Positions 400 to 40,597 of a stretch of DNA of 64,000 bases are shown here, in pieces. Under the pieces are notes generated by a model, which was not told the DNA's origin, did no database searches, and saw only the letters and a list, made by a program, of their open reading frames with translations. A program made the position numbers and the translations under genes. The stretch's first letter is position 1. Each line of letters opens with the position of its first letter. Location: the NCBI GenBank assembly GCA_017398555.1, contig JAFQFV010000037.1:1-64000 (forward strand), in the 5' to 3' direction. The stretch comes from Alistipes sp. Its GTDB lineage: Bacteria > Bacteroidota > Bacteroidia > Bacteroidales > Rikenellaceae.

Positions 400-524
400 G
401 TTTTATCGTCAGAGTGGTGCAGATTCGGCATATCGTGAAAACACCCCGGATGGGACATACTCTGCGTATTTCCCATTCGGGGATTTGAGGGATATGGCGA
501 AGGTGTGACACTATCACGATAAAA
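400..524 (+). repeat. Structured repeat R2, unit A1
   Basis: First of three R2 units in tandem. Outer arms TTTATCGTCA (401-410) and ACGATAAA (517-524) can pair. The central hairpin runs from CCCCGGATGGG to CCCATTCGGGG around a TATAC/GTATT-like inner stem. It is preceded by the R2 leader (about 370-400, containing TGTGCACT) that also precedes the single units at 23363, 31476 and 40471. Confidence 0.75.
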
Positions 525-528
525 CCGA

Positions 529-650
529 TTTATCGTCAAAAGTATGCAGATACGGTGCATCGTGATATAGGAGCGGATGGGACATACTACGGTATTTCCC
601 ATTCGGGACTATGAGGGATGTGCCGCAGGTGCGTGCTTTTCACGATAAAA
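529..650 (+). repeat. Structured repeat R2, unit A2
   Basis: Second tandem R2 unit, 4 nt after A1 and without its own leader. Arms TTTATCGTCA and CACGATAAAA flank a hairpin GGATGGG...CCCATTCGGG. The conserved strings GCATCGTGA and GAGGGATGTGC are shared with the other units. Confidence 0.75.
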
Positions 651-653
651 CCC

Positions 654-781
654 CATTTGTCGTCAGAGTGGGGCAGGTACAACGCTCGGCACAAAAAACA
701 GCGAAGGGCTGTACAAGACGTACTGCCCTTTGCTGGTTATTTGGGTTAGCGGAAGTAGATGCCCCGCTATCACGACAAATG
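654..781 (+). repeat. Structured repeat R2, unit A3
   Basis: Third tandem R2 unit, ending 4 nt before the stop codon of the outer-membrane gene at 786. Arms CATTTGTCGTCA and CACGACAAATG. The central hairpin (697-737) has AGCGAAGGGC, GTAC, GTAC and GCCCTTTGCT, unlike A1 and A2 in sequence but equivalent in pairing. The strings ACGCTCGGC and TTAGCGGAAG are shared with the unit at 40471, defining a subfamily. Confidence 0.75.
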
Positions 782-785
782 CACG

Positions 786-2210
786 TTAGAAGAGGTAGCC
801 GGTGTTGATATAAAACGCCCCCTTACCATCCTGCTTACGCAACTGACCGACAGGCAGACCGTACTCGAAAGCGACGATGAAGTTTTGGTTCATGATAAAG
901 CGAAGACCGGCACCGACGGTGATATGCGGGAGATCCTTCTCCTGACCCTTTGACATATACTCATCATACTCTGCGCGCACCTTAAGGTAGTCCAAACCGA
1001 GTTTCTCTACAGTACCCTTGAACTCCATATCGCGGCCTCTTGTGACGTATGTACCGTCGCTAAAGAGGTTCAGACCGAAGGCGATATTCTGCTTCCAGAG
1101 TGTGAAGTTCACAAAGCGCCAACGAATCTCGGCGTTATACGATGCCACATCCAGACCCTGCACGCGGTTACGCATAATACCACGCACGGTACGATAGCCA
1201 CCCATACCGTCACGGTCATACTGCGGACCTACGGTTGTAAGGTAAGGGCATACGTAGTATGGTGCATTCTTGCCGATAGTACCCTCATAGTTGAGTCGAT
1301 ATGCAATGGTGAGCACATCGTTCTTAATTACAGGGATATAGTGGCGGAAGGTTGCCGAGTAGCGGTAGTACGGGTTAGTTGTTCCGAGCCACTTCGGAGC
1401 GGCGATAATGTGAGCCTCAGCCCAAATACCGCGTGAAGGAGCTCCCTCCTTATCACGAGTATCGAAGAGCAGACCGGCACGGATAGTGCTATTCAGGCCG
1501 CCATCAGCCTCCTCATCAGAGATAAGACCCCACTCTCGATACTGCTCAAAGAGGGTCTTCTCGCTATCGGGGAACATCTTATGCTCTGCCTTATTCTTAT
1601 TAATCTTCTCGCGGTTTATAGCGCCCTGCTTGAAGTAGCTGAAGTGATAACCCGCCTCCCAGAAGAGCTTTTTGTCCCAGATATTACCGACAAAGTCACT
1701 CTTAAAGAGGATAGCCAGACGGTTAAGACGATACTTCGGAGTGTAGATGTACATATCCTCATTCTTCTTATCCTTACCTGCAGCGACCTTCTCGTGGTCG
1801 AAGTATGACATATAACCGTTAAAGCCGTAGAAGTCCATTGCCTTATCATTAAAGATAGTGAGCGCCGATGACCAACGCACGCCCGGAATAAGGAAGCGGT
1901 TGTCATACGAGAGGATATACTGCTGTGAGCCCTTTGTAAAGAAAGAGGCCTCGATATACCACTGCTGACGAGTATTTGGGTAGGTACTACCGTCACCAAA
2001 GTCGTAGATATTGAGCAGCGCACCGAGCTGGAAGCCCTTATCGGCATCAAATGCCACTGCGGGGAGCGGACCGAAGTTATAGCCGGTCTTTACAATCTCC
2101 TTCTTATCCTCTGTTTGAGCACTCTGCTCGGTTGTCTTCTTACTTTTAGCCTCTACGCTCTGAACAGCAAAGAGCACGAGCAGAAGCGAAACAATGTATC
2201 TAATCTTCAT
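786..2210 (-). CDS. Outer-membrane beta-barrel protein, surface antigen D15/BamA-like
   Basis: 474 residues. Signal peptide at about 1-20 (MKIRYIVSLLLVLFAVQS), then a short Lys/Thr/Glu-rich linker and an aromatic-rich barrel ending in ...TGYLF, the C-terminal Phe used for outer-membrane insertion. The segment APSRGIWAEAHI near residue 270 resembles the strand conserved in the D15/Omp85 surface-antigen family. There are no obvious POTRA domains, so this is a barrel-only relative, not BamA itself. An upstream Met would overlap the acyltransferase gene; the chosen start lies 11 nt past that gene's stop and directly begins the signal peptide. It is last in an operon with the acyltransferase and the symporter, suggesting an envelope role. 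Cargo unknown. Confidence 0.82.
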   Translation of the reverse strand: MKIRYIVSLLLVLFAVQSVEAKSKKTTEQSAQTEDKKEIVKTGYNFGPLPAVAFDADKGFQLGALLNIYDFGDGSTYPNTRQQWYIEASFFTKGSQQYILSYDNRFLIPGVRWSSALTIFNDKAMDFYGFNGYMSYFDHEKVAAGKDKKNEDMYIYTPKYRLNRLAILFKSDFVGNIWDKKLFWEAGYHFSYFKQGAINREKINKNKAEHKMFPDSEKTLFEQYREWGLISDEEADGGLNSTIRAGLLFDTRDKEGAPSRGIWAEAHIIAAPKWLGTTNPYYRYSATFRHYIPVIKNDVLTIAYRLNYEGTIGKNAPYYVCPYLTTVGPQYDRDGMGGYRTVRGIMRNRVQGLDVASYNAEIRWRFVNFTLWKQNIAFGLNLFSDGTYVTRGRDMEFKGTVEKLGLDYLKVRAEYDEYMSKGQEKDLPHITVGAGLRFIMNQNFIVAFEYGLPVGQLRKQDGKGAFYINTGYLF

Positions 2211-2220
2211 AGTAATAATA

Positions 2221-3534
2221 TTAATAAAGTATCTCTCTAATTTTACGATATTTTGCACGAAGGTCACTGTCGGCAAGCAGTTTTATATCCGAGCCAAAGA
2301 GTCGCAGAAGTCGCCAGCACTCCTGAGCCACGATTGGCGCAGGCAGAAAGGCAACAGTCAGCGGCAGAGCCCACTGCCAAGGCAGCACGGCATAGGCAAT
2401 TGCGGCGTAGATAATCATCAATATCGGCCAAACGATAAGGTTGATGAAGTAGCGTATCGAGTTACGGAAGGCGTAGTCCTTTAACCTCTTAAAGATAGCG
2501 CAGCACAGAGCATTTATCGGCAATGTAAGAATTGATGCCGGAATACTGTATGGCAGCGAAACAAGGACAAAGAGTGTCTTGAGAATACGCGACAGCACAG
2601 GATAGCGGACAGATACCGAGGCGAGGCTGATACGCTTTGACTTACGGCGCACAGAGGCCTCAGCACCAAGCTGCAACAGCTGTGCAGCGAGCTCAGGATT
2701 CTCGCTTTTCAGTCTATCAATCTGCTCTACGGTCTGCTTATTGAATCTAAAGTGCGCATCAAGGCGATTTTCGCCCCTCTCCCTATAGCGTTTAGCCTGC
2801 TGCTTTACCACAGCGGCACAAATCTCATATACGGCATCGTAGTTCTCGTCGTTCGGGATGTAGAATATCGACTCCTTCATTCGCTCGGCAAGGATATCCT
2901 TCAGCTCGACCATCTGCTCCGCCTGCGTAGCATCGCCGTGCGCAGCGATAAACTCACCCACATTAATAGGCTCGCCAATCTGCACGCGAACAGTCGAACG
3001 GAAACGGAAGAAGTTGCCATATCTCAGACCCATCGGAACGATATAGAGCGGCATATCGGGCATAAGTTCCTGAGCCTGAAAAGCGATGCGGAAGATACCC
3101 TTTGAGAGTGGTAGCGACGAATATTTCGCCTGATGTGTACCCTCAGGAAAGATGCAGAACGGCACCTTGTCGCGCAACACATCTACAGCCTTCTCAAAAA
3201 TCTCCTGATTCTTCTTCACCTCATCATAGCCGTCACGCATACGCATAATCGGCATAATCTTGAGCCAAGTGAGAATCTTCGCAAGTTTCGGATTTCGGAA
3301 GATATCTGCGCGAGCAACAAAGACCTTCGGCTTACGATCCATCGCAAGGATAACCAACGCATCCATCAGGGCGTTTGTGTGGTTTGGAGCATAGATAACC
3401 GCCCCATCCTGCGGGATACGCTCCTTGCCCACATATCGCACAGAGCGATAGGAGAGTCGGAGTGCAAAATCTACGTAGTAACGCAGCAGCCAATAGAGGA
3501 AGTCGAAGTCTTGGATTTTCTTCTCCTTTGCCAT
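2221..3534 (-). CDS. 1-acyl-sn-glycerol-3-phosphate acyltransferase-like protein (PlsC superfamily)
   Basis: 437 residues. The PlsC/LPLAT domain occupies about 30-250: the acceptor motif NHTNALMD (HX4D, about 51-58) and FPEGTH (about 129-134) are both visible. The C-terminal third contains two or three hydrophobic helices (about 320-400), longer than classical PlsC (about 240 residues) and typical of larger Bacteroidota members of the family. Likely acylates a lysophospholipid or related lipid at the inner membrane; the exact acceptor cannot be read from sequence. It lies 34 nt after the symporter gene and 11 nt before the barrel gene, so the three are probably co-transcribed. Confidence 0.88.
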   Translation of the reverse strand: MAKEKKIQDFDFLYWLLRYYVDFALRLSYRSVRYVGKERIPQDGAVIYAPNHTNALMDALVILAMDRKPKVFVARADIFRNPKLAKILTWLKIMPIMRMRDGYDEVKKNQEIFEKAVDVLRDKVPFCIFPEGTHQAKYSSLPLSKGIFRIAFQAQELMPDMPLYIVPMGLRYGNFFRFRSTVRVQIGEPINVGEFIAAHGDATQAEQMVELKDILAERMKESIFYIPNDENYDAVYEICAAVVKQQAKRYRERGENRLDAHFRFNKQTVEQIDRLKSENPELAAQLLQLGAEASVRRKSKRISLASVSVRYPVLSRILKTLFVLVSLPYSIPASILTLPINALCCAIFKRLKDYAFRNSIRYFINLIVWPILMIIYAAIAYAVLPWQWALPLTVAFLPAPIVAQECWRLLRLFGSDIKLLADSDLRAKYRKIREILY

Positions 3535-3568
3535 ATATAGAAATTGTGTTTAACAGACAGATTTAGCT

Positions 3569-4528
3569 CTACTCTGCCAGCGGTTTTCTGCGGAAAAGGT
3601 ATGCAACGGTAAGACCCGCAACAATATGCCAGATACCCCACCATGCAGTTACGATAAGCATACCTCCGTAGTGACCGTGCCAAATCTCCGGCGGGAAGAT
3701 TGCAGGGTTGAAGAGCATAATAAGACCCAGACCAGAATTCTGAATACCCACCTCGATAGTGAGCGAACGGTAATCCTTCTCCGGCAGTCTAAAGAGCTTA
3801 CCGCCGAAATATCCTGTACCCAAAGCACAAGCATTGTGGAGCAAGACGATGAAGAAGATGTAGAAGATGTTATCTACAATAATCTGGAAATTCTGCGAGA
3901 ACGATACGATAACCATACCGATAAAGAGCAGTACTGAGAGTACCTGTGCAGGCTTGGTAATTCTCTTTGTGGCATTCGGAAAATACTTTGCAAAGAGCAG
4001 ACCGCACACGATAGGCACACCGAGGAGCAACAAAATCTGCTCAAGCATCGGCAGGAATGGAATTACCAGCACCGGAATATCGCTATGTACGCTGACAAAG
4101 TGGCTGTAAAGAGTACCCCACAACCAAAAATTAAACGGCGTTACTATCGGTGCAAAAGCGGTAGTAATAGCCGTCATAGATACTGATAACTCAGTGTTTC
4201 CCTTCGAGAGTGACGAGATGAAGTTGGAGATGTTTCCACCGGGACAGCACGCCACCAAAATCATACCCAGAGCAACCATTGGTGTAATCCAATGATTAAG
4301 TGCCAAAGCCACTGCGAATGTCACTGCCGGAAGTCCTATCCACTGCATTAACACACCGACAATCACAGACTTAGGCTTTTTGAATACCTCCTTGAATGTT
4401 GATGTTTTAATGCCGAGAGCAACTCCGAACATAACAAAAGCAAGGATGATATTTACAATCATCATTCCCCCCTCACCAAAATTGATAGTCAATTCATTCA
4501 GACTCTCTAATTGTTCTTTCATTCCCAT
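3569..4528 (-). CDS. Bile acid:sodium symporter family protein (SBF/BASS)
   Basis: 319 residues with about nine to ten hydrophobic helices. The segment MILVACCPGGNISNFISSLSKG (about 92-113) carries the CPGGNxSN signature of the SBF/BASS family, where discontinuous helices bind Na+. Family members move organic anions with sodium: bile acids in animals, pantoate, pyruvate or steroids in plants and bacteria. The substrate here is unknown, although a gut anaerobe could use bile salts. A second Met two codons later (4522) is an equally good start. First gene of the run with the acyltransferase and barrel protein. Confidence 0.87.
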   Translation of the reverse strand: MGMKEQLESLNELTINFGEGGMMIVNIILAFVMFGVALGIKTSTFKEVFKKPKSVIVGVLMQWIGLPAVTFAVALALNHWITPMVALGMILVACCPGGNISNFISSLSKGNTELSVSMTAITTAFAPIVTPFNFWLWGTLYSHFVSVHSDIPVLVIPFLPMLEQILLLLGVPIVCGLLFAKYFPNATKRITKPAQVLSVLLFIGMVIVSFSQNFQIIVDNIFYIFFIVLLHNACALGTGYFGGKLFRLPEKDYRSLTIEVGIQNSGLGLIMLFNPAIFPPEIWHGHYGGMLIVTAWWGIWHIVAGLTVAYLFRRKPLAE

Positions 4529-4650
4529 AAGACAATGTAAATATTAAATTGTGCAATATAAATGTTGTTTCTATCCTAAGCCCCTGATAATCAGGAAATA
4601 TTAGCAGTTCCACCCCACTATTCGTCGGCCAACATTACACTAATTAAATA

Positions 4651-4658
4651 CAAATGTA
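4651..4658 (-). promoter_or_regulatory. Candidate -7 box for symporter operon
   Basis: Minus-strand TACATTTG fits the Bacteroidota TAnnTTTG element. No clear TTTG lies about 20 nt upstream, and the implied leader is about 120 nt, so support is modest. The rest of the gap 4529-4938 is AT-rich and shows no gene. Confidence 0.35.
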
Positions 4659-4873
4659 GCAAAATATTTTGATTCTTCGCCCTTTTTGCACATAAAATAG
4701 GACTTTTTAGAACATATCATCAAAAGTAGAGATACAAGACCGGAGCAAAGAGCACCCGTTATAAAATTCATTATTTATGTTGCAAAACACCCGAAAAAAT
4801 TTACAAAAATACACTGCTGATAATCAGATATTTACGATTTTATTTCAAAAAAGTGCTATTTTTTTAACAGATT

Positions 4874-4907
4874 TTTGCACTTTTGTACAATTTTTGTTTT
4901 ATCTTTG
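4874..4907 (+). promoter_or_regulatory. Promoter of PepSY-like gene
   Basis: TTTG (4874-4877), 22 nt, then TATCTTTG (4900-4907), a good Bacteroidota -33/-7 pair. It predicts a leader of about 25 nt before the start at 4939. Confidence 0.7.
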
Positions 4908-4938
4908 CCGTTAGAAAAGTAACTTAAAACTTTATACA

Positions 4939-5373
4939 ATGAAAAGATTTATATTAGCAATGGTACTATTTTTCGCATCGACTGCAGTTGTTGTTGCAGA
5001 CGAGCGTCCGATAAAGATTGGTCAGATGCCTAAGGCGGCCATCAGCTTTTTGAATAAAAACTTCACAGGCATTGATGTTCTATACGCCAACGTTGAGCGC
5101 GATATTTTGGATACCGACTACGAGGTAGGACTTGTAAATGGGACCAAAATCGACTTCAACGGCAGTGGCGAGTGGACAGAGGTGTCCAACAAGAAGAGTG
5201 GCGTTTCAAATAAGCTACTTCCGCAGAAGATTACTACGTACATAGAGCAGAACTACGCCAACGCTCAGATAATCAAGATTGAGCGTAGCAGTCGCAAGTA
5301 CGAGGTGAAGCTGACAAACGGGTTAGAGTTACTCTTCACAACAGATGGAGAGTTGATTGGTTTTGACGACTAA
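4939..5373 (+). CDS. Periplasmic PepSY-like domain protein
   Basis: 144 residues. Signal peptide at about 1-20, then two PepSY-like repeats (about 25-80 and 95-144). Each has the pattern of an amphipathic helix followed by YEV-type strands: DYEVGLVNGTKIDFNGSGEW and KYEVKLTNGLELLFTTDGEL. This matches the PepSY-like family common in Bacteroidota, whose structures resemble beta-lactamase inhibitor protein. Role unknown; such proteins may bind or inhibit peptidases in the periplasm. Single-gene unit: own promoter at 4874 and a terminator at 5429. Confidence 0.82.
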   Translation: MKRFILAMVLFFASTAVVVADERPIKIGQMPKAAISFLNKNFTGIDVLYANVERDILDTDYEVGLVNGTKIDFNGSGEWTEVSNKKSGVSNKLLPQKITTYIEQNYANAQIIKIERSSRKYEVKLTNGLELLFTTDGELIGFDD

Positions 5374-5428
5374 AGGTATATTCATAATGGAAATTGGTTA
5401 GTAAGTGTTGTTTAATTTGTGTTGGTAG

Positions 5429-5461
5429 CGGGTGTCCAAATTTGGGCACCTGCTTTTTTAT
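5429..5461 (+). terminator. Rho-independent terminator of PepSY-like gene
   Basis: The inverted repeat GGTGTCCAAA (5431-5440) and TTTGGGCACC (5441-5450) has one wobble and is followed by TGCTTTTTTAT. The right arm contains the TTTG used as -33 element by the following promoter. Confidence 0.8.
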
Positions 5462-5472
5462 AACTACCTTTG
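5441..5472 (+). promoter_or_regulatory. Promoter of comEC, overlapping the terminator
   Basis: TTTG (5441-5444), 20 nt, then TACCTTTG (5465-5472), only 4 nt before the ATG at 5477. The expected transcription start coincides with the start codon, so the mRNA would be leaderless. The -33 element lies in the terminator hairpin of the preceding gene. Confidence 0.65.
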
Positions 5473-5476
5473 TACT

Positions 5477-6934: not shown

Positions 6935-6980
6935 AACTATATATTATAAGTTTTAGTAATAGTATTATAAAAAATATCAA

Positions 6981-8382: not shown

Positions 8383-8386
8383 AATA

Positions 8387-16929: not shown

Positions 16930-16983
<54 letters not shown>

Positions 16984-17003
<20 letters not shown>

Positions 17004-17096
17004 CCTTAGGACAGTCAATCGACTGTCCTTTTTTTTATTTTGCAGCAGCAACTGCGTTGCAATGTTCAAAGTATGGTTAATAGCACAAGTAAACTT
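16984..17096 (+). repeat. Direct repeat of tRNA-fMet 3' end, copy A
   Basis: From TTCGAGTCCC in the tRNA through the terminator to AAACTT. It matches 17307-17417 with one substitution and a 2-nt shorter T-run. It marks a tRNA-associated duplication of the attL/attR type. Confidence 0.85.
17008..17036 (+). terminator. Terminator of tRNA-fMet
   Basis: Perfect hairpin AGGACAGTC-AATC-GACTGTCCT followed by eight T. A second copy with six T lies at 17331-17357. Confidence 0.9.
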
Positions 17097-17306: not shown

Positions 17307-17417
17307 TTCGAGTCCCACTCCCGCTACCTTAGGACAGTCAATCGACTGTCCTTTTTTATTTTGCAGCAGCAACTGCGTTGCAATGTTCAAAGTATGGTTA
17401 ATAGCACAAGCAAACTT
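17307..17417 (+). repeat. Direct repeat of tRNA-fMet 3' end, copy B
   Basis: Second copy of the tRNA T-arm, acceptor 3' strand, terminator and about 60 nt of flank, lying 323 nt after copy A. The two copies bracket a 210-nt GC-rich segment containing the ORF fragment, as expected for a decayed integrated element. Confidence 0.85.
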
Positions 17418-23070: not shown

Positions 23071-23362
23071 CCGCAGGCTACGCAGTACCGCACAGAGTAC
23101 TGCCCGCTTTTTCGAGAAAAAGCATAGGAGTAGTTTTAACCCCTCTTCCCACGTTCTTTGTGGCTGTTTTTAGTTCTTGTCGCACAATCTCTTTGCCAAA
23201 TAGGCCGCGCTATGTGGCTGCATAGCTTGCGCAACAAACTCCTAAAAACATCGCACAAATAACATTGCAAGAGAGATTAAAGCCACTCCTGACAAAAAAC
23301 TTTCGCCAAATCTGCACACCTTTTTATCATCAAGAGGTTGCATACCGCTCAATCAGCGCACT
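23071..23362 (+). repeat. Repeat-island segment without R1 core
   Basis: The first 55 nt (GGCTACGCAGTAC, TACTGCCCGC and the hairpin GCTTTTTC-GA-GAAAAAGC) resemble 40021-40080. Near 23293 AAAAACTTTCGCCAAA matches the start of R1, but the R1 core is missing. The R2 leader follows (about 23331-23362, CAAGAGGTTG...). No gene is visible. Confidence 0.55.
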
Positions 23363-23503
23363 CATTTGTCGTCAAAATGCGGTAGTAGGTGCGCATCGCA
23401 AAAGAAACCCCTTTGGGATAGTAGTAAAATCTACAGCCCAAAGGGGTTTACTTTTAGGGATGTGCAGCTAATGCCGTATTTTCACGGCAAATGCCGACAA
23501 ATG
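23363..23503 (+). repeat. Structured repeat R2, unit B
   Basis: Arms CATTTGTCGTCA and GCCGACAAATG. The central hairpin (23405-23449) is AAACCCCTTTGGG...CCCAAAGGGGTTT around AGTAG/CTAC, different in sequence from the other units but equivalent in pairing. It ends 10 nt from the stop of the gene at 23514. Confidence 0.75.
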
Positions 23504-23513: not shown

Positions 23514-24659
23514 CTATTCGACAAGAACAAACGGAACCCCCTCCCTCCCCACAAACTTATACATAGTAGCAGTGCAACTCTGGTACGGCTTATTGCGCTT
23601 GCGGTGAGAGATATAGAAGTAGTTATCGCCCAATGCGTGCATACCTGTAGAGGCCTTATCGAAGTGCCAACCGCGCACATCGGTATGGTTAGGGTCGGTC
23701 ATACCGCGACCGCAGAGGGTAAGAACGCTCTGCTTCTTTGCGTAATCAACACCCTTAAGGTTCTGCTTCTTTGGTGCGATATTTCCATCCACAACGTGGA
23801 GAGTAAAGCCGGCAAAATCACTCTTCTTTGTCTCGTAAGTCGCTAAGAACCAGAAGTTTCGAGTCTTGTCGTACTCCATATTCTGCACGCCCCAATTCCT
23901 ATTACCTGTATAGACGAAGTAGCGGCCTGCAGGCTTCTTAGGACCCGACTGGTGCATATTCTCCTGCGAGAGTGGCTGCTCATATTTCGCCAAATTTTTG
24001 GTGTCATACTGGAGCAGTACCTGATAGTCGTTATCTGTGCGGCTCTTATCGCCATAGATACCGTAAGCGATTGTCATATAGTACTTTCCATCGCTCTTGC
24101 CAAACTTCGGTCCAAAGGTTATGCCATCGAAACCACTACAGCCGTAACGGTGCTCAAGCTCTGTGCCGTTATTTACAACCTTCGCCTCAAAATCCTCAAG
24201 CACTGTTGGCAGATATATCGAGGTCATAATGCCGTCCTTCTCGGCGCTCATACCCTCACGAGTAATCTTATCCACATCAAAGATAGCAACATAAAACGCT
24301 GTATCCCAATGCTTTGTCGTATTCTCCTGCTTAAGAATACCACGACCGATAGAGTCATTTTTATACTCCAACGAGCCATAAATTCTGCCATCCTCCTCGT
24401 TAAACTCGATACAGCCGAGGTGACCGAGCAGACCCGTTACCGTACCGATAATATTTCCCTGCAGGTCGGCCTTAATGAGCATTGTGGTAAATGAGTAGTA
24501 GATATAGCCCTGCTTGGCATCGACTGCAATACCCTGTATATGACCCGCCTTCCACTCACCGGAGTAGATCTGTTTCGGGAACTTCTCGATTGGCGTTGCA
24601 GCCTGAAGAGCACCAAAGCCGACAAAGAGAGCAACAATGGTTGTAAATAGTTGTTTCAT
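23514..24659 (-). CDS. Exported protein of unknown function, beta-propeller-like
   Basis: 381 residues. Signal peptide at about 1-20 (ending ...LQA). The mature part has repeated strand patterns such as IQGIAVDAKQGYIYYSFTT, IEFNEEDGRIYGSLEY and MEYDKTRNFWFLATYET, suggesting a beta-propeller, with a Cys pair in GCSGFDG and LCGRG. No catalytic motif was recognised. Genes of this type are found in Bacteroidota as conserved hypotheticals. It follows the small membrane protein at 24671 by 11 nt, so the two may be co-transcribed; its stop abuts R2 unit B. Confidence 0.7.
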   Translation of the reverse strand: MKQLFTTIVALFVGFGALQAATPIEKFPKQIYSGEWKAGHIQGIAVDAKQGYIYYSFTTMLIKADLQGNIIGTVTGLLGHLGCIEFNEEDGRIYGSLEYKNDSIGRGILKQENTTKHWDTAFYVAIFDVDKITREGMSAEKDGIMTSIYLPTVLEDFEAKVVNNGTELEHRYGCSGFDGITFGPKFGKSDGKYYMTIAYGIYGDKSRTDNDYQVLLQYDTKNLAKYEQPLSQENMHQSGPKKPAGRYFVYTGNRNWGVQNMEYDKTRNFWFLATYETKKSDFAGFTLHVVDGNIAPKKQNLKGVDYAKKQSVLTLCGRGMTDPNHTDVRGWHFDKASTGMHALGDNYFYISHRKRNKPYQSCTATMYKFVGREGVPFVLVE

Positions 24660-31229: not shown

Positions 31230-31387
31230 AAACTTTCGCCAAAACTTCGTTTTGGTAGTGTCTGTTGCGAGAATAACGTTGTCTGCGACAATAGAAAAAC
31301 AAAAATAGCACTTCACTTTCAAGCAAGCTTGAGTGAGTGCTATTTTCATTTTTACTATCCTTGCGGATAGCTGTTATTCTCGAAAAA
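31230..31387 (+). repeat. Structured repeat R1, copy 2
   Basis: Closing stem CGAGAATAAC (31268-31277) with GTTATTCTCG (31373-31382); upstream hairpin CCAAAAC/GTTTTGG. The first and third inner hairpins are as in copy 1. The middle arm is quite different, AAAATAGCACT...AGTGCTATTTT with CAAGCAAGCTTG at its tip, yet still fully paired. The R1 trailing segment seen in the other two copies is absent. Confidence 0.8.
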
Positions 31388-31475
31388 GAATTAAAAAACC
31401 ATAGTTCTGCACTACGCTACATCCGTGCACTCATTTTCTCCTTCAAGAGTTCGCACGCCTCTTAATATGTGCACT

Positions 31476-31620: not shown

Positions 31621-32715
31621 TTATACAAATGGTAACTTAACCACCTCCGCCTTCAACAACCTTCCACGCACCTCAACAGCGATAACGGTGCCGACCTTTG
31701 CGTATTCGGTCTTAACATAGCCCAAGCCGATACCGACGTTGAGAGTTGGGGAGATAGTACCTGAGGTTACTACGCCGATAGAGTTACCCTCAAGGTCAGC
31801 GAGTGGATACTCGTGGCGAGGGATACCGCGGTCAATCATCTTAAAGCCGACGAGCTTACGGCTCACGCCCTCAGCCTTCTGTGCTGCGAGCAGATCGCGG
31901 TCGAGAAACTCCTTACCATCGACGAACTTGGTAATCCAGCCCAAGCCCGCCTCAAGTGGAGAGGTGGTGTCAGAGATGTCGTTACCATAGAGGCAGAAGC
32001 CCTTCTCAAGGCGCAGGGTATCGCGAGCGCCGAGGCCGATATTCTTCAGACCATACTCCTCGCCTGCTGCCCAGAGGGCGTTCCACATCTTCTCTGCATC
32101 CTCATTGTGGAGGTAAATCTCGCAGCCACCTGCACCTGTATAGCCGGTAATTGAGAGGATAGAGTCGCAGCCAGCCACATCCATCTGGCGGAAGGTATAG
32201 TACTCCATATCCTCAACAGGCTCTGCGCACATCTTCTGCACAATCTTCATAGCCAACGGGCCCTGTACAGCCAGCTGACAGATGCGATCTGAAGCGTTCT
32301 CCAGCTCCACGCCCTCGCGCATACCGAACTGCTCGCCATATTTGAGGATGTGAGCCCAATCCTTAGCGATATTTGCGGCATTTACGCAGAGCATATACTT
32401 TGTCTCGCTAAAGCGATATACAAGCACATCATCGACAATACCGCCCTGACCATTTGGCATACAAGAGTAGAGCACCTTGCCGTCATAGAGCTTTGAGCAG
32501 TCGTTAGACATAATCTTCTGGAGCAGAGCGAGTGCATTGCTGCCCTTAACCCAAATCTCGCCCATGTGGCTAACATCAAAGACGCCCGCACCATTGCGAA
32601 CAGTGGCGTGCTCATCCTTAATGCCCGAGAACTCGATTGGCATATTATAACCCGCAAACTCCGCCATCTTGGCACCTGCGGCAATGTGATAAGAGGTAAA
32701 AGGTGTAACTTTCAT
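31621..32715 (-). CDS. gcvT: Glycine cleavage system aminomethyltransferase (T protein)
   Basis: 364 residues, the normal length. Motifs: [13 protein letters not shown] (about 46-58), [23 protein letters not shown] (about 98-120) and [21 protein letters not shown] (about 193-213), plus the C-terminal GCV_T barrel ([17 protein letters not shown]). It releases ammonia from aminomethylated H protein and passes the one-carbon unit to tetrahydrofolate. A longer frame to 32871 would run into the neighbouring gene; [10 protein letters not shown] is the standard start. Last gene of the ftsY operon; the other gcv genes are not in the window. Confidence 0.94.
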
Positions 32716-32759
32716 ATTGTTTTTTGGTTTTAAGGTTTTCGTTAGTATGCTATTTTCAA

Positions 32760-33974
32760 CTACTCGGTCTTTGCCGGACGCTTGAAGCCTACACGCGGAC
32801 AACGAGTAAACTCCTTGGTGCGATCGAAGAGGTAGCGATATGTAGTGTGCATCTTGTGCTGATTTGCACAAACGTATGTCTTAATCATCTTATTCATCAC
32901 AGGGTTAAAGTCGCCAATCCACGCAAACTCAAACGATTTATACGAGTTGCGACCCTTCTGGATATAATTCTCAAGGATATAGGTCATAATGGCGCTCTCG
33001 ATACCTTTACCCTGGTATTCGGGTGTTATACCGAAGATAATACCAAACACTCTGTCGCACGACTTACGCACCTTGAGTTCGTACATAAGGCGCAACTTCT
33101 CAATCAGTCCGAACTTACCGTTAAATTTACCTATTACACAGTTAAGATCAGGCACCATAACAAAGAAACCTATTGGTTTGTCGTTATGGTAGGCGAAATA
33201 TATCAAATTAGGATCAATAATCGGACGAAGAGTACGCATAAGGGTCTGAGCCTCCTCCTTTGTCATCTCCTTAACTCCTGTAAACAGAGCCCACGCCTTA
33301 TTGTAGATAGTACGCAGATTTTCAGCCGCCTCCTCGAGTTTTGTGTTGTTGATATCCTTGATTTGATACTCCGGATTGGCCAACACGCGATGGGCCTTCT
33401 CAAGAGCCGTTTCGCTCAGTACGCCATCTTGTACACGCCAAACATAGGTATTCTGATTAAAGTAGTTCTGGAAGCCGTAGTTCTCAAACAGCGCCTTGTA
33501 GTATGGTGGATGGTATGGGTTGGTATAGAGCGGCTGATAGTCATAGCCCTCAACGAGCAGGCCCCACCAAGCATCACGCGAGCCGAAGTTTATCGGGCCA
33601 TCCATAGCCTCCATACCCTTTGACTCAAGCCACTGCTTGCAGGCATCAAACATCATATTTGCCACCTGCTGGTCGTCGATACTCTCAAAGAAACCGCAAC
33701 CACCTGTCGGCTGCTCATAGTCATCCGAGCCATTCTTGTCATAAAATGCCGCAATACGACCCACAGCCTTGCCCGACTCGCTATCCTCAACATACCAACG
33801 AATAGCCTCGCCGTGCTGGAACTTCTTATTCTTCTGAGGATCGAATACTGCCAAAATATCGTTATCCAACGGACAGACCCAATTCTCATAGTTCTCATAT
33901 ATCGGACGATCTACGTGCAACCACACCTTCTCATCCGCACTATTCAATACCTCTTTCAGAATGTACTTTGCCAT
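32760..33974 (-). CDS. GNAT-like N-acetyltransferase of unknown substrate
   Basis: 404 residues. It belongs to a Bacteroidota-wide family often labelled [29 protein letters not shown] (about 55-79) resembles an N-terminal half domain, and the C-terminal half has [25 protein letters not shown] (about 305-329), like the acetyl-CoA-binding QGxGxxxA motif. Bulky aromatic residues are frequent ([27 protein letters not shown]). Cytoplasmic, no signal peptide. Substrate unknown. It is located between the Sel1 gene and gcvT, with 27- and 44-nt gaps. Confidence 0.75.
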
Positions 33975-34571: not shown

Positions 34572-34582
34572 AGATAGTCAAA

Positions 34583-35878: not shown

Positions 35879-35890
35879 TCAAATAGTCTT

Positions 35891-36886
35891 CTATTTTCCA
35901 AACAGAGCCCTCACAAATTCGTGACGGTCAAAAATCTTAAGTTGGTCTATACCCTCACCCACGCCGATATAACGAACAGGCACGCTGAATGAGTCGCTGA
36001 TACCGATAACCACGCCACCCTTTGCCGTACCGTCAAGCTTTGTGATGGCAAGCGATGTGACCTTTGTCGCTGCAGTAAACTGACGAGCCTGCTCAAAGGC
36101 GTTCTGCCCTGTCGAGCCGTCGAGCACAAGCATAACCTCGTGCGGAGCATCAGGAATAACCTTCGCCATAACGTTACGAATCTTTGTCAGCTCATTCATC
36201 AGACCCACCTTATTGTGCAGTCGGCCTGCAGTATCAATCAGCACCACATCGGCACCGTTTGCAACGGCACTCTTGAGTGTATCGTAGGCAACAGAAGCAG
36301 GGTCGGAACCCATCTGCTGGCTAATCATCGTAGCACCCGCACGCTCTGCCCAAACGGCGAGCTGGTCGATAGCCGCCGCACGGAATGTATCGGCAGCACC
36401 GATATAGACCTTCTTACCGGCACGCACAAGCTGCGCTGCGAGCTTACCGATAGTGGTTGTCTTACCGGCGCCATTGACACCCACAACCATAACCACATAC
36501 GGCATACCCTCCTTAACATCAAGACCGAAGTTTTCGACTTTACCCTCAGCCTCCTCCATCAGCAGTGCAATCTCATCGTAGAGGATACTCTGCAACTCGT
36601 CAGAGCCTACATACTTATCACGTGCCACACGTGCCTCGATGCGCTCAATAATCTTCACGGTGGTATCTACACCCACATCGGATGTAATGAGTACCTCCTC
36701 CAGCTCATCCAGCACCTCTGCATCCACGGTCGAACGACCTGCAACGGCACGCGCTATCTTTGAAAAGAAGCCCTCCTTGGTCTTCTCCAGGCCTGCATCC
36801 AAATCCTTACGATCCTGCGCTACAACATCACTCTGCAGCTGCTCATCTTCCTTTTTCTTACTCTTAAAAAGATCAAAAAATCCCAT
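35891..36886 (-). CDS. ftsY: Signal recognition particle receptor FtsY
   Basis: 331 residues. Short charged N terminus ([16 protein letters not shown]), then the NG domain: [16 protein letters not shown] (G1, about 117-132), DTAGRLHNK (G3), [10 protein letters not shown] (G4, about 276-285) and the closing [11 protein letters not shown]. FtsY docks the SRP-ribosome complex at the membrane. The long acidic A domain of E. coli FtsY is absent, as in most Bacteroidota. First gene of the operon ftsY-rimO-Sel1-acetyltransferase-gcvT; a minus-strand -7 box lies 29 nt upstream. Confidence 0.95.
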
Positions 36887-36914
36887 AATAGAAACATTCT
36901 GTGTAAATCAATGC

Positions 36915-36922
36915 AAATATAG
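36915..36922 (-). promoter_or_regulatory. Candidate -7 box of ftsY operon
   Basis: Minus-strand TATATTTG, 29 nt before the ftsY start. No consensus -33 element. Confidence 0.45.
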
Positions 36923-36957
36923 TAAAAATTACTATATTTCAGCCTCCATATAGGCAT

Positions 36958-37004
36958 AAAAAATATTCCGATAGCAGGCTATGCTGTCATCGGAATATTT
37001 TTCA
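36958..37004 (-). terminator. Terminator of sulfatase gene
   Basis: Inverted repeat AAAAATATTCCGAT with ATCGGAATATTTTT around a smaller GCA...TG stem. It ends in a T-run on the minus strand, 18 nt after the sulfatase stop, and also shields ftsY from read-through. Confidence 0.8.
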
Positions 37005-37021
37005 GCTATTCGACACCGCTA

Positions 37022-38581
37022 CTAAGGGTAGGTAATTTCAAGTTGGAATAGCGGATTTTCAATCTCTGTGTGCGACTCTTTTATGGCTCGCCACATAGCC
37101 TTTACCACCTGTTGTTTTTCGGCTGCCAAATCACGCTCCTCTCGCGGATCATTCACAATATCAAAGAGTTGCATTGTCGTATTTCCATCGGCAACATCGG
37201 TCACAAGACCCTTCCACTGCCCCATTCTCACGCTCAGCCAACCCCTATCTTTCCTAAATGGCGGGAACTCCCAATAGAGGTACTTATGCTCCTTTTGGCG
37301 GCCACCGACAAGTGTCGGCAGCAGTGATATTCCGTCACCCTTTGGCGCCTTAACACCCGCAATATCGCAGAGCGTCGGCATAACATCGGGGAAGTAGCCG
37401 ATATGGTCACTCACCGTCGGGGTTATTCTATCGCCCCACGCAACGATAAACGGCATACGGATACCGCCCTCGTGCAGCGAACGCTTTGTCCAGCCACGAT
37501 CGCTACGGAACGGGTGGGCGCAGTCAAACCAATTGGTATTTGTGTAGCTGTTATGGGTCGGGCCGTTATCGCTCGTAACCATTATTATCGTATTGTCATA
37601 CAGACCTTTAGCCTTCAGCAACTCGACAAGTTTTCCAATCTGAAAATCGAGATACGATATCATCGCCGCGTATGTCGCCTTCGGGTAGCGCGTAGGGAAA
37701 TAACCCTTACCCAAATAGACGGGCTGCTCATCGCCAAACTTCTCGACATACTTCGCCACCCACTCATCCGGAGCCGAGAGGGCACTATGCGGAATTGTTG
37801 TGGTCCACATCAAGAAGAAGTTTTCATCGGCACTATCCTCAACAAATCGCTCAATGCGCTCATAAATTGCATCGGGGCTGTATGTCGGGCCTGTGAACTT
37901 CTTGTAACTCGCACTATCATAAGGGTCTGCGCCCTTGTCGAGCTTATCTCCCAAATTCATCCTCGGATTGGCTGTATATTCCCTCTCCAAACCGTTGTAG
38001 AGGAACGGCGGATAGTAGCACTGCGCCATACGCTGACACAGATAGCCATAGAAGTAGTCAAAACCCATATCAAGCGGGGTGCTCTTCGAGTTTACGCCAC
38101 CCAAACCCCACTTACCAATCAGCGCCGTGCGATAGCCCGCATCACGCATAACGGTCGCAAGTGTCGTTGTCCCCTCAGTAAGCGGTGCCTGACCCTCAAG
38201 CTCAGGGTTGGCACGCATCGCATCTATGCTCCACACATCGCCACGGCCTACCATCTCATCATTCGAGCGAATCTGCGCATGTCCCGAATGTAGCCCCGTC
38301 ATCAGCGTACAACGCGACGGAGCCGAGACAGGCGCACCGGCATACATATCTGTAAAACGGACACCGCGAGCCGCCAACGCATCTATATTCGGCGTCTCGA
38401 TTTTGGTCTGTCCATAACAGCCAAAGTCGCCATAGCCCGCATCATCCAGCAGGATAAATACCACATTTGGCCGCTGATTATCACACTTCTTGCTGCACTT
38501 GCCGACATTTGCAGCCTCTGCTTGCGCCGTTGCCACCATCGCACACGCCATAGCCGCAACCGCTGCTCGATTCTCTCTCAT
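37022..38581 (-). CDS. Sulfatase, S-type (formylglycine-dependent), exported
   Basis: 519 residues. Signal peptide at about 1-23. The alkaline-phosphatase fold has the metal-binding FILLDDAGYGDFG (about 42-54) and the active-site SAPSR (Ser86 to Arg90), so formylglycine is made from serine, which requires the anaerobic radical SAM maturase anSME. TSDNGPTHNSY and GEFP-like C-terminal segments (YWEFPPFRKDRGW) are typical of family S1 sulfatases. It removes sulfate esters from glycans such as mucin or glycosaminoglycans; the substrate is not determinable here. Not inside a SusCD locus. No anSME gene in the window. Confidence 0.92.
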   Translation of the reverse strand: MRENRAAVAAMACAMVATAQAEAANVGKCSKKCDNQRPNVVFILLDDAGYGDFGCYGQTKIETPNIDALAARGVRFTDMYAGAPVSAPSRCTLMTGLHSGHAQIRSNDEMVGRGDVWSIDAMRANPELEGQAPLTEGTTTLATVMRDAGYRTALIGKWGLGGVNSKSTPLDMGFDYFYGYLCQRMAQCYYPPFLYNGLEREYTANPRMNLGDKLDKGADPYDSASYKKFTGPTYSPDAIYERIERFVEDSADENFFLMWTTTIPHSALSAPDEWVAKYVEKFGDEQPVYLGKGYFPTRYPKATYAAMISYLDFQIGKLVELLKAKGLYDNTIIMVTSDNGPTHNSYTNTNWFDCAHPFRSDRGWTKRSLHEGGIRMPFIVAWGDRITPTVSDHIGYFPDVMPTLCDIAGVKAPKGDGISLLPTLVGGRQKEHKYLYWEFPPFRKDRGWLSVRMGQWKGLVTDVADGNTTMQLFDIVNDPREERDLAAEKQQVVKAMWRAIKESHTEIENPLFQLEITYP

Positions 38582-38603
38582 AAATAGGTATGGTTATCTG
38601 TCA

Positions 38604-38611
38604 CAAATATA
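38604..38611 (-). promoter_or_regulatory. Candidate -7 box of sulfatase gene
   Basis: Minus-strand TATATTTG, 22 nt before the sulfatase start; weak -33. It is divergent from the tRNA promoter at 38630. Confidence 0.45.
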
Positions 38612-38629
38612 ACATTTTTCCATAAAAGA

Positions 38630-38661
38630 TTTGCACCATTTACACATTTTTCCTATCTTTG
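38630..38661 (+). promoter_or_regulatory. Promoter of tRNA (CAT)
   Basis: TTTG (38630-38633), 20 nt, TATCTTTG (38654-38661), 29 nt before the tRNA. Confidence 0.75.
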
Positions 38662-38690
38662 TCGCCGTAAAATTTACAAAAAATTTTTCA

Positions 38691-38764
38691 GGACCCATAG
38701 CTCAGTCGGTTAGAGCAGCGGACTCATAATCCGAAGGTCGTGGGATCATGCCCCTCTGGGTCCA
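38691..38764 (+). tRNA. tRNA with CAT anticodon (Met, or Ile2), unusual T-loop
   Basis: 74 nt. Acceptor GGACCCA/TGGGTCC, discriminator A, anticodon loop CTCATAA. The T-arm is GTGGG-ATCATGC-CCCTC: the loop lacks T54 and A58 of the normal TTCGANT and the stem has one T-T mismatch. It could be elongator tRNA-Met, or tRNA-Ile2 if C34 is changed to lysidine; this cannot be settled here. Confidence 0.85.
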
Positions 38765-38765
38765 C

Positions 38766-38796
38766 AAGGCTTCGCCAGTTGGCGAGGCCTTTTTTT
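38766..38796 (+). terminator. Terminator of tRNA (CAT)
   Basis: Hairpin AAGGCTTCGCC-AGTT-GGCGAGGCCTT followed by a T-run, 1 nt past the discriminator base. Confidence 0.85.
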
Positions 38797-38829
38797 GTTG
38801 CCATATATGCGGATGCAACGAAAATTTTG

Positions 38830-38837
38830 TAACTTTG
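38830..38837 (+). promoter_or_regulatory. -7 box of patB-like gene, leaderless layout
   Basis: TAACTTTG, then TGGT, then ATG at 38842. Four bases separate box and start codon. The -33 region is poor. Confidence 0.5.
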
Positions 38838-38841
38838 TGGT

Positions 38842-40020
38842 ATGAAGTACAACTTTGACCAGATTATTGACCGCCGAGGTTCGGGAGCTATCAAGTGTGA
38901 CGGACTCGAGCAGTGGTATGGCAACAGCGAGCTGCTGCCTATGTGGGTTGCAGATATGGACTTTGCAACGCCCGACTTTATCATCGACGCTATCAAGGCG
39001 CGACTTGAGCACCCCATTTTCGGCTACACAATGGAGCCTGAACGCTACCGCAAGGCGATTATCAGCTGGATTGCCTCGCACCATAATTGGCAGATAGAGA
39101 GCGATTGGATATGCTACATCCCCGGCATTGTCAAGGGTATCGCAATGGCGATGGTGTCACTACTCAAGGTGGGCGACAAGGTTATCATTCAGCCGCCCGT
39201 ATATCACCCCTTCCGCAACGTGGCTACGCACAACGGTTTTGAGGTTGTCGAGAACCCGCTGCGTCGCACCGAGAGTGGTAGCTATGAGATTGACTTTGAG
39301 AATCTTGAGGCGGTTGCTGACAGCCGTTGCAAGATGCTCATCCTTGCCAATCCGCACAACCCTGTGGGTATTCTCTGGAGCCGCGAGACGCTCGTTCGCC
39401 TTGCCGACTTCTGCCTGAGCCGCGGCATTATCGTAATCTCAGACGAGATTCACTGCGACATGGCACTTTGGGGTAAAAAGCATATCCCGTTTGCATCGGT
39501 CAGCGACAAAGCCGCCGAGTGCAGCATCACCTTCGGCGCACCATCAAAGACATTTAACATCGCAGGCATTGTCACCTCCTACGCCATCGTGCCAAATGAG
39601 AGCCTTCGCGAGAAGTTCTTCGGTTGGATGGGCGGCAACGAGCTCAACCAGCCCGACATCTTCGCTCCTATAGCCACCGTGGTAGCCTTCGAAAATGGCG
39701 AGCCGTGGAGAGTGCAGATGCTCAAATATGTGGAGGAGAATATCGAATTTACAATCGACTTCTGCCGCAAATATATCCCGCAGATAACCCCTATCCGCCC
39801 CGAAGCCTCGTTCCTCGTATGGCTCGACTGCCGAGAGCTAAACCTCAGCCACACAGAGCTCGTCGAGCTGTTTGAAAACAGGGCAAAACTCGCCCTTAAC
39901 AGCGGCGCCATCTTCGGCACCCAGGGCGAAGGATTTATGCGCCTCAACGTCGGCACACCACGCTCCGTTCTCGAACAAGCCCTACAGCAACTAAAGGCAG
40001 CTATTGCAGATTTAGGATAG
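38842..40020 (+). CDS. patB: PatB/MalY-type cystathionine beta-lyase (PLP aminotransferase fold)
   Basis: 392 residues. Fold-type I PLP enzyme: MWVADMDFATPDFI (about 34-47) is the PatB/MalY signature, then NPHNPVGILWSRE (about 171-183), SDEIHCDMALWG (about 202-213) and the PLP lysine in GAPSKTFNIAG (about 233-243). These enzymes cleave cystathionine or cysteine S-conjugates to pyruvate, ammonia and a thiol. No regulator domain. It follows the tRNA and its terminator, and a repeat island follows it. Confidence 0.9.
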   Translation: MKYNFDQIIDRRGSGAIKCDGLEQWYGNSELLPMWVADMDFATPDFIIDAIKARLEHPIFGYTMEPERYRKAIISWIASHHNWQIESDWICYIPGIVKGIAMAMVSLLKVGDKVIIQPPVYHPFRNVATHNGFEVVENPLRRTESGSYEIDFENLEAVADSRCKMLILANPHNPVGILWSRETLVRLADFCLSRGIIVISDEIHCDMALWGKKHIPFASVSDKAAECSITFGAPSKTFNIAGIVTSYAIVPNESLREKFFGWMGGNELNQPDIFAPIATVVAFENGEPWRVQMLKYVEENIEFTIDFCRKYIPQITPIRPEASFLVWLDCRELNLSHTELVELFENRAKLALNSGAIFGTQGEGFMRLNVGTPRSVLEQALQQLKAAIADLG

Positions 40021-40089
40021 CCAGAGGCTACGCAGTACTGCCCGCACAGTACTGCCCGCTTTTTCGAGAAAAAGCAGGGCGTGCAAAAA
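40021..40089 (+). repeat. Left boundary of repeat island at 40 kb
   Basis: GGCTACGCAGTAC, two GCAGTACTGC or CAGTACTGCCCGC strings and the hairpin GCTTTTTC-GA-GAAAAAGC, shared with 23071-23125. It directly follows the patB stop and may also act as its terminator. Confidence 0.6.
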
Positions 40090-40245
40090 GCTTTCTGCGA
40101 AACTCCGTTTCGCTTGTAGGCTGTTGCGAGAATAACGTTGTCTGCGACAATAGAAAAACAGCAAGAGCAGTAGTTTGTAAGCAAGCTTACACTACCGCTC
40201 TTTCTATTTTTACTATCCTTGCGGATAGCAGTTATTCTCGAAAAA
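40090..40245 (+). repeat. Structured repeat R1, copy 3
   Basis: Closing stem CGAGAATAAC (40127-40136) with GTTATTCTCG (40231-40240); inner hairpins identical to copy 1. The upstream hairpin is GCGAAAC-TCC-GTTTCGC (40097-40113) instead of CCAAAAC-TTC-GTTTTGG, with paired changes at two positions. Confidence 0.8.
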
Positions 40246-40435
40246 AAATCAAAACAGAGTTTTGTTCTCTGCCAAATCCAAAAACAAACGGCTGATACTA
40301 ATACTTTACAAAATATTTACATTTCCCCCAAACCCCCTTTTGAAAAAAGGGGGCTTAGTCGCAGAGTTCCTCTGCTCCGGGTGCAACAATTAAGCGGGTT
40401 TCCTTGCTACGCAGTACAGCTAACGCAGTAAAAGC
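40246..40435 (+). repeat. R1 trailing segment, copy 2
   Basis: Matches 158-350 closely. Hairpin CCCCCTTTT-GAA-AAAAGGGGG (40333-40353) and GCAGAG-TTC-CTCTGC. No gene is visible. Confidence 0.7.
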
Positions 40436-40470
40436 AAACCAGAGTTCACACTCCGCTCAATCTGTGCACT

Positions 40471-40597
40471 CATTTGTCGTCAAAAGGTAGTAGTAGCAAC
40501 GCTCGGCGAAATTGAACACGATGGGCTGTACTAAGCGTACTGCCCATTGTAGGCATATTTCGTTAGCGGAAGCTAATGCTGCCTTTTCACGACAAAT
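40471..40597 (+). repeat. Structured repeat R2, unit D
   Basis: Arms CATTTGTCGTCA and CACGACAAAT. Central hairpin CGATGGGC-TGTAC...GTACT-GCCCATTG. Same subfamily as A3 (ACGCTCGGC, TTAGCGGAAG). Its last base touches the stop codon of the gene at 40597. Leader at 40441-40470. Confidence 0.75.

What the first reader, a model, noticed from the sequence alone, without database searches (positions are those of the whole stretch)
400..40597. R2: six folded repeat units with a covarying central hairpin
Units at 400, 529, 654, 23363, 31476 and 40471 share arms (CATTTGTCGTCA / CACGACAAATG or TTTATCGT / ACGATAAA) and short core strings, while the central hairpin differs: CCCCGGATGGG/CCCATTCGGGG, CCCCTTTGGG/CCCAAAGGGG, CGAAGGGC/GCCCTTTG, CGATGGGC/GCCCATTG. 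Sequence changes but pairing stays, which indicates selection on structure (RNA or single-stranded DNA). A shared leader precedes the four first units. I know no named family that fits.
Basis: seen in the sequence. Interest (0 to 1): 0.75.

Follow-up and report, generated by a model that had tools for sequence, protein, structure and literature searches.

The report
Rod-shaped hairpin repeats at gene ends
Gut bacteria related to Alistipes carry many copies of a rod-shaped, self-folding DNA repeat that changes its letters but keeps its shape and length, and that in this bacterium and its near relatives usually sits at the very ends of genes; which protein or process reads the shape is not known.

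Summary
The six units belong to a family of about 126-nt single hairpins with 148 covariance-model matches at 112 sites in this 2.03-Mb Alistipes-like genome. A broader model hits 41 of 61 genus genomes, one other genus convincingly, and four more weakly. Sequence varies widely, but pairing, a C-C mismatch near the base, a TAC...GTA tip and arms of about 50 nt persist. Pairing is kept on one strand: G-T against A-C cells are 288 to 20, and close copies show the same bias. In this genome and near relatives the unit's 3' end usually abuts the end of a gene on the opposite strand, at or near its stop codon, and in one case a tRNA 3' end. Units keep to one strand along contigs. Several orthologous gene ends keep a unit while its inner modules differ. 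No Rfam family, Y1 transposase, integron integrase over cut-off or upstream promoter motif was found. Best reading: an ERIC/MITE-like repeat recognised as a folded single strand; protein and mechanism unknown.

The parts
400..525 (+). R2 unit (outer arm TTTTATCG, CCCCGGATGGG inner module)
   Evidence: fold; CM R1 119.1 bits
527..651 (+). R2 unit, second of the tandem array
   Evidence: CM R1 115.1 bits
654..781 (+). R2 unit, gene-proximal unit of the array, other inner module (AACGCTCGGC / GTTAGCGG)
   Evidence: CM R1 109.7 bits; a unit is also at the orthologous gene end in L053 (G029) and L113 (Rikenellaceae MAG SIG182)
23363..23493 (+). R2 unit (CCCCTTTGGG inner module)
   Evidence: CM R1 107.3 bits
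31476..31601 (+). R2 unit
   Evidence: CM R1 133.5 bits; the orthologous gene end carries units of other subtypes in G003, G006, G028, G061
40471..40598 (+). R2 unit; right end overlaps the stop codon of the minus-strand gene
   Evidence: CM R1 107.3 bits; stop codon TTA at 40597
371..399 (+). leader before the first unit
   Evidence: sequence
23334..23362 (+). leader
   Evidence: sequence
31447..31475 (+). leader
   Evidence: sequence
40442..40470 (+). leader
   Evidence: sequence
786..2276 (-). gene whose 3' end the array 400-781 abuts
   Evidence: ORF list
23514..24659 (-). gene whose 3' end unit 23363 faces (gap 20 nt)
   Evidence: ORF list
31621..32871 (-). gene whose 3' end unit 31476 faces (gap 19 nt)
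   Evidence: ORF list
40597..42453 (-). gene whose stop codon overlaps unit 40471
   Evidence: ORF list
1..180 (+). element A, a second long-hairpin repeat in the same orientation; further copies in the window at 31230-31409 and 40088-40267
   Evidence: 32 blastn matches in this genome; the three window copies fold at z = -8.7 to -10.1

Best explanation
R2 is a non-coding, non-autonomous interspersed repeat family of Rikenellaceae, ERIC/MITE-like in kind. SHOWN HERE: each unit is a rod-shaped hairpin of nearly constant length (two arms of about 50 nt between a conserved base, GTCA/TCAC with a C-C mismatch, and a conserved TAC...GTA tip). Pairing is selected on one strand, the one antisense to the neighbouring gene. 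In this genome and its near relatives the unit's 3' end usually abuts that gene's end. Several orthologous gene ends keep a unit while its inner modules differ. INFERRED: the folded single strand, more likely DNA since no promoter motif reads into it, is recognised at its base and tip by an unidentified recombinase or repair protein during copying and exchange between sites. Contact with the gene end may mark the limit beyond which insertion or replacement would damage the gene, and the strand bias would follow from coupling to replication. The host pays little because the repeat sits outside the functional gene product.
For: Genome-wide family: 148 CM matches at 112 sites. One-strand selection: G-T 288 against A-C 20 cells on 41 pairs chosen on that strand, 22 to 7 on the 22 pairs shared with the fold of the complement; consensus fold -35.6 against -6.7 kcal/mol for the complement; in 37 close pairs, five random draws, WC->GT 29-35 against WC->AC 8-9, p 4e-5 to 1.1e-3. 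Non-coding flanks on the same strand are C-rich, so a general drift to G/T is not the cause. 5' arm (GTCA to TAC) 48-52 nt in 176 of 176 measurable of 193 distinct units and in 21 of 21 measurable of 33 in G128 and G122; 3' arm 48-52 in 175 of 176 (one 71) and 47-50 in 21 of 21 (matches were found with models of that length, which favours it). No promoter motif into the unit: TANNTTTG in 2 of 45 own flanks (2.4 expected) and 7 of 67 relatives' (4.5 expected); on the other strand 13 of 45 and 10 of 67. Contact: stop codon -10..+20 nt from the unit in 34 of 45 (12.1 expected) and 53 of 67 (15.7 expected) antisense neighbours; tRNA-Arg 3' end at distance 0 in L043 and its orthologue L156. Strand constancy: 98 of 105 sites on the contig's majority strand, random mean 72, maximum 84 in 2000 draws. 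Inner modules differ at orthologous ends. Tandem arrays: gene-side unit full in 22 of 22 own and 21 of 22 relatives' arrays; other units full in 14 of 29 and 19 of 26.
Against: No mobilising protein was found. No filled/empty site pair with a target duplication was found; two of the window's four sites had no unit at the orthologous end in the five relatives examined for each, but those regions are rearranged. Sites shared between species suggest that movement is old or rare. Contact with gene ends is weaker in more distant genomes: 6 of 18 units of G128 and 4 of 18 of G122 lie within 20 nt of an antisense gene. Strand against skew in G122 contig C4 fits at 5 of 7 sites, one of them mixed and one where skew is near zero. 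G-T pairs are also what an RNA would show, and no expression data were at hand. That the leading strand is G-rich is recalled, not tested.
Confidence: 0.45

Rival explanations
1. Host 3'-UTR element: the unit, transcribed with the gene, forms a hairpin right after the stop codon and sets mRNA stability, termination or ribosome release, as proposed for ERIC and for REPs within 15 nt of a stop codon.
For: Units lie directly 3' of genes, several sites are shared between species, the gene-side unit of an array is nearly always the intact one. Precedents: passages of PMC2229807 and PMC12306157.
Against: The strand under pairing selection is the other one, not the mRNA strand. The unit also abuts a tRNA 3' end, where there is no stop codon. 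I saw no T-run after the hairpin in the window units.
Confidence: 0.2
2. Structured non-coding RNA transcribed from the unit strand, toward the gene's 3' end, bound by a dedicated protein at base and tip.
For: Recurrent G-U wobbles, conserved base and tip, near-fixed arm length also in another genus.
Against: No promoter-like motif enriched upstream on that strand (motif recalled). In 16 of 50 own and 41 of 81 relatives' sites with both neighbours called, both genes point the other way, so simple read-through from an upstream gene would not supply it.
Confidence: 0.2
3. No selection: arms are kept complementary by arm-to-arm template correction, as in quasi-palindromes.
For: Whole inner blocks differ symmetrically between copies.
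Against: Correction predicts no strand asymmetry and would remove the C-C mismatch and the wobbles; both persist in many sequence types and in another genus.
Confidence: 0.05
4. Integron attC-like recombination sites: the folded bottom strand, directly after a gene, is the substrate of a tyrosine recombinase.
For: Position directly after the gene and selection on the strand antisense to the gene resemble attC (attC features recalled).
Against: Integron integrase over cut-off in 0 of 41 genomes; all 41 have weaker matches, best 88.5 bits against a cut-off of 265, as general tyrosine recombinases give; the control genomes had none over cut-off either. Terminal arms lack the recalled RYYYAAC/GTTRRRY core; the tip is conserved rather than variable.
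Confidence: 0.05

Closest known systems
ERIC / IRU / RU-1 (enterobacteria, 127 bp) and the bacterial MITE group (NEMIS, RUP, RPE, YPAL)
   Same: Non-coding, about 100-200 bp, one long stem-loop, many intergenic copies, orientation relative to genes reported to matter for ERIC (passages of PMC2229807).
   Different: No sequence comparison with ERIC was made. Here terminal arms themselves covary instead of being a fixed TIR; no target duplication or TA end shown; contact with a gene end; strand bias along contigs; near-constant arm length; inner modules that differ at shared sites.
REP / REPIN elements with RAYT (GTAG- and CGTC-tagged)
   Same: Extragenic palindromes concentrated downstream of genes; CGTC occurs at the base.
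   Different: REPs are 20-40 bp with the tag unpaired (PMC3733652 abstract); here one rod of about 126 nt, with CGT of CGTC paired in the stem; no Y1 transposase in 41 genomes.
Integron attC sites (features recalled)
   Same: Long imperfect hairpin directly after a gene; the strand antisense to the gene is the one kept foldable.
   Different: No integron integrase over cut-off, no core boxes, conserved tip, and the window's neighbours are long ordinary genes in operon-like runs.

Membership tests
REP/REPIN-RAYT | 20-40 bp palindrome with GTAG or CGTC tag | tested here: not met
   full units are single rods of about 122-131 nt; definition from the abstract of PMC3733652
REP/REPIN-RAYT | Y1_Tnp (RAYT) in carriers (holds for GTAG REPs; CGTC REPs lack one according to PMC3733652) | tested here: not met
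   PF01797 in 0 of 41 genus genomes, control rings in 5 of 14; many of the genomes are incomplete
ERIC/MITE-like repeat | many short non-coding intergenic copies with one long stem-loop | tested here: met
   148 matches, single-stem folds in the copies folded
ERIC/MITE-like repeat | fixed terminal inverted repeat and target site duplication | tested here: inconclusive
   termini are inverted but vary in sequence; no clean empty site obtained
ERIC (the enterobacterial family itself) | sequence homology to ERIC | not tested
   no ERIC sequence was compared
Integron attC | integron integrase in the genome | tested here: inconclusive
   TIGR02249 over cut-off in 0 of 41, but also in 0 of 14 control genomes
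Integron attC | R boxes RYYYAAC/GTTRRRY (consensus recalled) | tested here: not met
   terminal arms are mostly TTTNNCGT...ACGNNAAA
Any Rfam family | match at gathering score | tested here: not met
   only four tRNAs in the window; two sub-threshold microRNA matches in 360-800
Retroelement-mobilised RNA | reverse transcriptase in carriers | tested here: not met
   RVT_1 in 15 of 41 genomes: none in this genome nor in unit-rich G011, G017, G021, G022, G028, G035, though present in unit-rich G003, G006, G025, G029, G061, G064

The most novel reading that the evidence does not exclude
R2 is a shape-defined rather than sequence-defined genetic element: a near-fixed-length hairpin rod that spreads and renews itself without a transposase. 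Its folded strand, on the inferred leading-strand template just past a gene, would stall synthesis; the nascent strand, ended at the gene's 3' boundary, would switch to another unit and copy its inner modules. This would explain contact with gene ends, strand bias, modular differences at shared sites, variable distal flanks, intact gene-side units and the one-sided wobble pairs together.
Probability: 0.17. Interest if true: 0.88.

Novelty: new variant of a known kind. Interest (0 to 1): 0.62.

Why it matters
It is an abundant repeat of Rikenellaceae with a strong one-strand structural signature, absent from Rfam. How small bacterial palindromic repeats without a known transposase spread is stated as open in PMC3733652 for CGTC REPs (passages) and in PMC2229807 for bacterial MITEs (passages). 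With about 150 copies in this genome, many sites shared between species and a nearly fixed geometry, R2 makes that question testable. It also breaks assemblies: several contigs of this genome begin or end inside R2 units or element A.

Tried and rejected
RAYT/Y1 mobiliser: 0 of 41. Y2/IS91 transposase: 0 of 41, but nothing rang in the 14 controls, so this is no evidence of absence. Reverse transcriptase: present in some carriers, absent from others and from this genome. Integron integrase: none over cut-off. Viral contigs, phages and plasmids: no match to the final pattern or to window 400-781; an earlier looser pattern gave 4 viral hits, not followed up and read as chance. Translation-only explanation of contact with gene ends: weakened by the tRNA-Arg case. 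A first pair-substitution count used a consensus fold of both members and so could hide broken pairs; it was replaced by a count on one member's own fold. Alignment A2 mixed both strands because the element is palindromic; it was not used, and A3 was built from unit-strand matches. In one search the script that looked for stop codons overshot in some relatives, and I first read G003 as lacking a unit at the 31621 gene end; one search showed a divergent one. Rows dropped: second-strand matches of the same unit and three weak or partial ones (L200 156-279, L209 5039-5159, L215 2649-2727) before the counts; one search left out four more short or odd ones. Literature: five full-text searches (15, 4, 12, 10 and 9 rows seen of up to 258) listed no paper on such a repeat in Alistipes or Rikenellaceae; I saw the abstract and passages of PMC3733652 and passages of PMC12306157 and PMC2229807, the rest as listings. 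Subscription papers and preprints are not covered.
Full report
WHAT IS THERE. Blastn of one unit already gives 48 matches in the genome of the window, G000 (2,030,739 bases, 38 contigs, 89.4% complete; the window is contig C35:1-64000). A covariance model of 59 full copies (A1, R1) gives 148 matches (993 candidates, 150 scored, so a lower bound), which collapse to 112 sites: 84 single, 20 double, 8 triple. In a first set of 77 copies the unit strand folds more stably than its complement in 77 of 77.

STRUCTURE AND SELECTION. On A1 94.2% of cells pair, against 75.6% in shuffles and 33-48% with partners slid by 1-3 columns; no shuffle of 500 reaches any measure. The pairing is one-stranded: on the unit strand G-T cells number 288 and A-C cells 20, and the consensus fold of the reverse complement falls from -35.6 to -6.7 kcal/mol. 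The 41 pairs were chosen on the unit strand; on the 22 pairs shared by both folds the count is 22 to 7, with 19 copies leaning to G-T, 6 to A-C and 34 even. A count on single members' own folds in 37 independent close pairs gives WC->GT 29-35, WC->AC 8-9, double WC changes 22-23 and transversion breaks 10-18 over five random draws (p 4e-5 to 1.1e-3). The non-coding flanks are C-rich on that strand (G 1319, C 1559; relatives 1919 and 2168), so a general G/T drift does not explain it. Invariant or nearly invariant positions sit at the base (GTCA/TCAC with a C-C mismatch) and at the tip (TAC...GTA). The 5' arm, GTCA to TAC, is 48-52 nt in 176 of 176 measurable of 193 distinct units from this genome and relatives, in 13 of 13 measurable of 17 in G128 and in 8 of 8 measurable of 16 in G122; the 3' arm, GTA to TCAC, is 48-52 in 175 of 176 (one 71), 47-50 in G128 and 49 in G122. 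The units were found with models of that length, which favours it.

WHERE IT SITS. Of 50 own sites with a predicted gene on both sides, 45 have a gene on the opposite strand at the unit's 3' side; its stop codon lies -10..+20 nt from the unit in 34 of 45 (40 of 45 within -11..+21), 12.1 expected for a unit placed uniformly in its gap. In relatives 67 of 81 have such a gene and it is 53 of 67 (62 of 67 within -25..+19), 15.7 expected. Genes here are the longest non-overlapping ORFs of at least 80 codons, a rough call; 11 and 21 sites at stretch ends were left out; the own set includes stretches fetched partly because they held minority-strand units; the relatives' loci were fetched by a pattern for intact units. 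The other side is loose: median gap 184 and 208 nt. Seven contigs hold sites on both strands; of the seven minority-strand or tied sites looked at, six also abut the end of an antisense gene, and one (C1:49674) does not. In L043 and its orthologue L156 the unit begins at distance 0 from the 3' end of tRNA-Arg(CCT), so a stop codon is not required.

STRAND. 98 of 105 sites on contigs with more than one site are on the contig's majority strand (random mean 72, maximum 84 of 2000). Third-position skew separated by gene strand shows the unit strand to be C-rich (own -0.076, window -0.102, relatives -0.037), so linked genes are on the leading strand if that strand is G-rich (recalled). In G122 contig C4 skew changes sign near 220 kb; of 7 sites 5 fit (the one at 61 kb where skew is near zero, the one at 100 kb of mixed strands), those at 184 and 219 kb do not; the stretches of contig C3 are uninformative.

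DISTRIBUTION AND TURNOVER. R1 hits 24 of 37 genus genomes including the own one and 0 of 24 from other families of the order. R2, built from 92 units of many genomes, hits 41 of 61 genus genomes. In a family-wide draw it hits 9 of 61: two of six from genus g1 and seven of 55 from other genera, of which G128 (g40) has 36 matches and the other six (in g29, g34, g38, g40, g44) 1-5 weak ones that I did not look at. Counts per genome are capped at 56-57 in those calls and can include both strands of one unit. In G128 most sequences are very different but the same base, tip and length recur, and the unit strand is the more stable in 17 of 18 (17 of 19 in G122). Contact with gene ends is weaker there: 6 of 18 units and 4 of 18 within 20 nt of an antisense gene. 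Orthologous gene ends carry a unit in several species in a number of cases, for instance the gene at 31621 in G003, G006, G028 and G061 as well, but not in G005, G029 or G030, nor in G002, G014 and G018, which have no match anywhere. The genes at 23514 and 40597 have no unit at that place in the five relatives examined for each (L060 of G003 has one further off). The loci compared were mostly fetched because they hold units, so no rate of sharing can be given. At shared sites the outer arms may be near-identical while the centre differs, as in L026/L081, L028/L152 and L140/L162. Over 33 listed pairs (one of them, L015/L020, two loci of this genome) paired columns were kept by 92 one-sided and 214 two-sided changes, on a consensus fold that by construction shows kept pairs. 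Arrays are polar: the unit on the gene side, judged by orientation, is full in 22 of 22 own and 21 of 22 relatives' arrays, the others in 14 of 29 and 19 of 26. In this genome 11 of those 29 lack the 3' end; in the ones I read, leader-like sequence stands there instead.

WHAT IT IS NOT. Rfam: none. Y1 transposase: none in 41. Integron integrase over cut-off: none in 41, nor in the controls. RVT_1: absent from this genome and six other unit-rich ones, present in six. Plasmids and phages: no match. Upstream of the unit, in its own direction, the recalled Bacteroidetes -7 motif is near chance (2 of 45, 2.4 expected; relatives 7 of 67, 4.5 expected), while the opposite strand, which may carry promoters of neighbouring genes, has it in 13 of 45 and 10 of 67 (the expectation is from shuffled flanks).

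READING. The nearest kind is the bacterial MITE/ERIC group (PMC2229807, passages). R2 departs from what those passages describe in covarying termini, near-fixed arm length, selection on the strand antisense to the neighbouring gene, contact with gene ends in one clade, strand bias and inner modules that differ at shared sites. I take the folded single strand to be the recognised form, more likely DNA than RNA because no promoter motif was found and no expression data were at hand, at 0.45. The recognising protein, the act of movement and any benefit to the host are not shown.

Noticed in passing
window 1-180, 31230-31409, 40088-40267: A second long-hairpin repeat (element A), 32 blastn matches in this genome, in the window in the same orientation as the R2 units and upstream of them; several contigs start or end in it.
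   Followed up: partly
window 16984-17096 and 17307-17417: A tRNA 3' end, a terminator-like hairpin with T-run and about 66 nt beyond are repeated at 96-98% identity 321-323 nt apart; only the copy at 16930 is called a tRNA by Rfam.
   Followed up: no
L043 2989-3061 and L156 5909-5981: tRNA-Arg(CCT) with an R2 unit starting at its very 3' end in two genomes.
   Followed up: partly
window 682-752: An R2 unit gives a weak, sub-threshold match to a microRNA-precursor family (mir-26, 21.2 bits, gathering 57), as a long imperfect hairpin may; read as chance.
   Followed up: no
L082, L087, L101, L110 upstream of units: Short near-tandem stretches such as GCTAATGGCTAACGGCTA recur in intergenic DNA of several relatives.
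   Followed up: no
L219 6135-6260 and L220 3535-3660 (G128): Two units of quite different inner sequence from the rest share the usual base, tip and length; their interiors are nearly identical to each other though they lie on different contigs.
   Followed up: no
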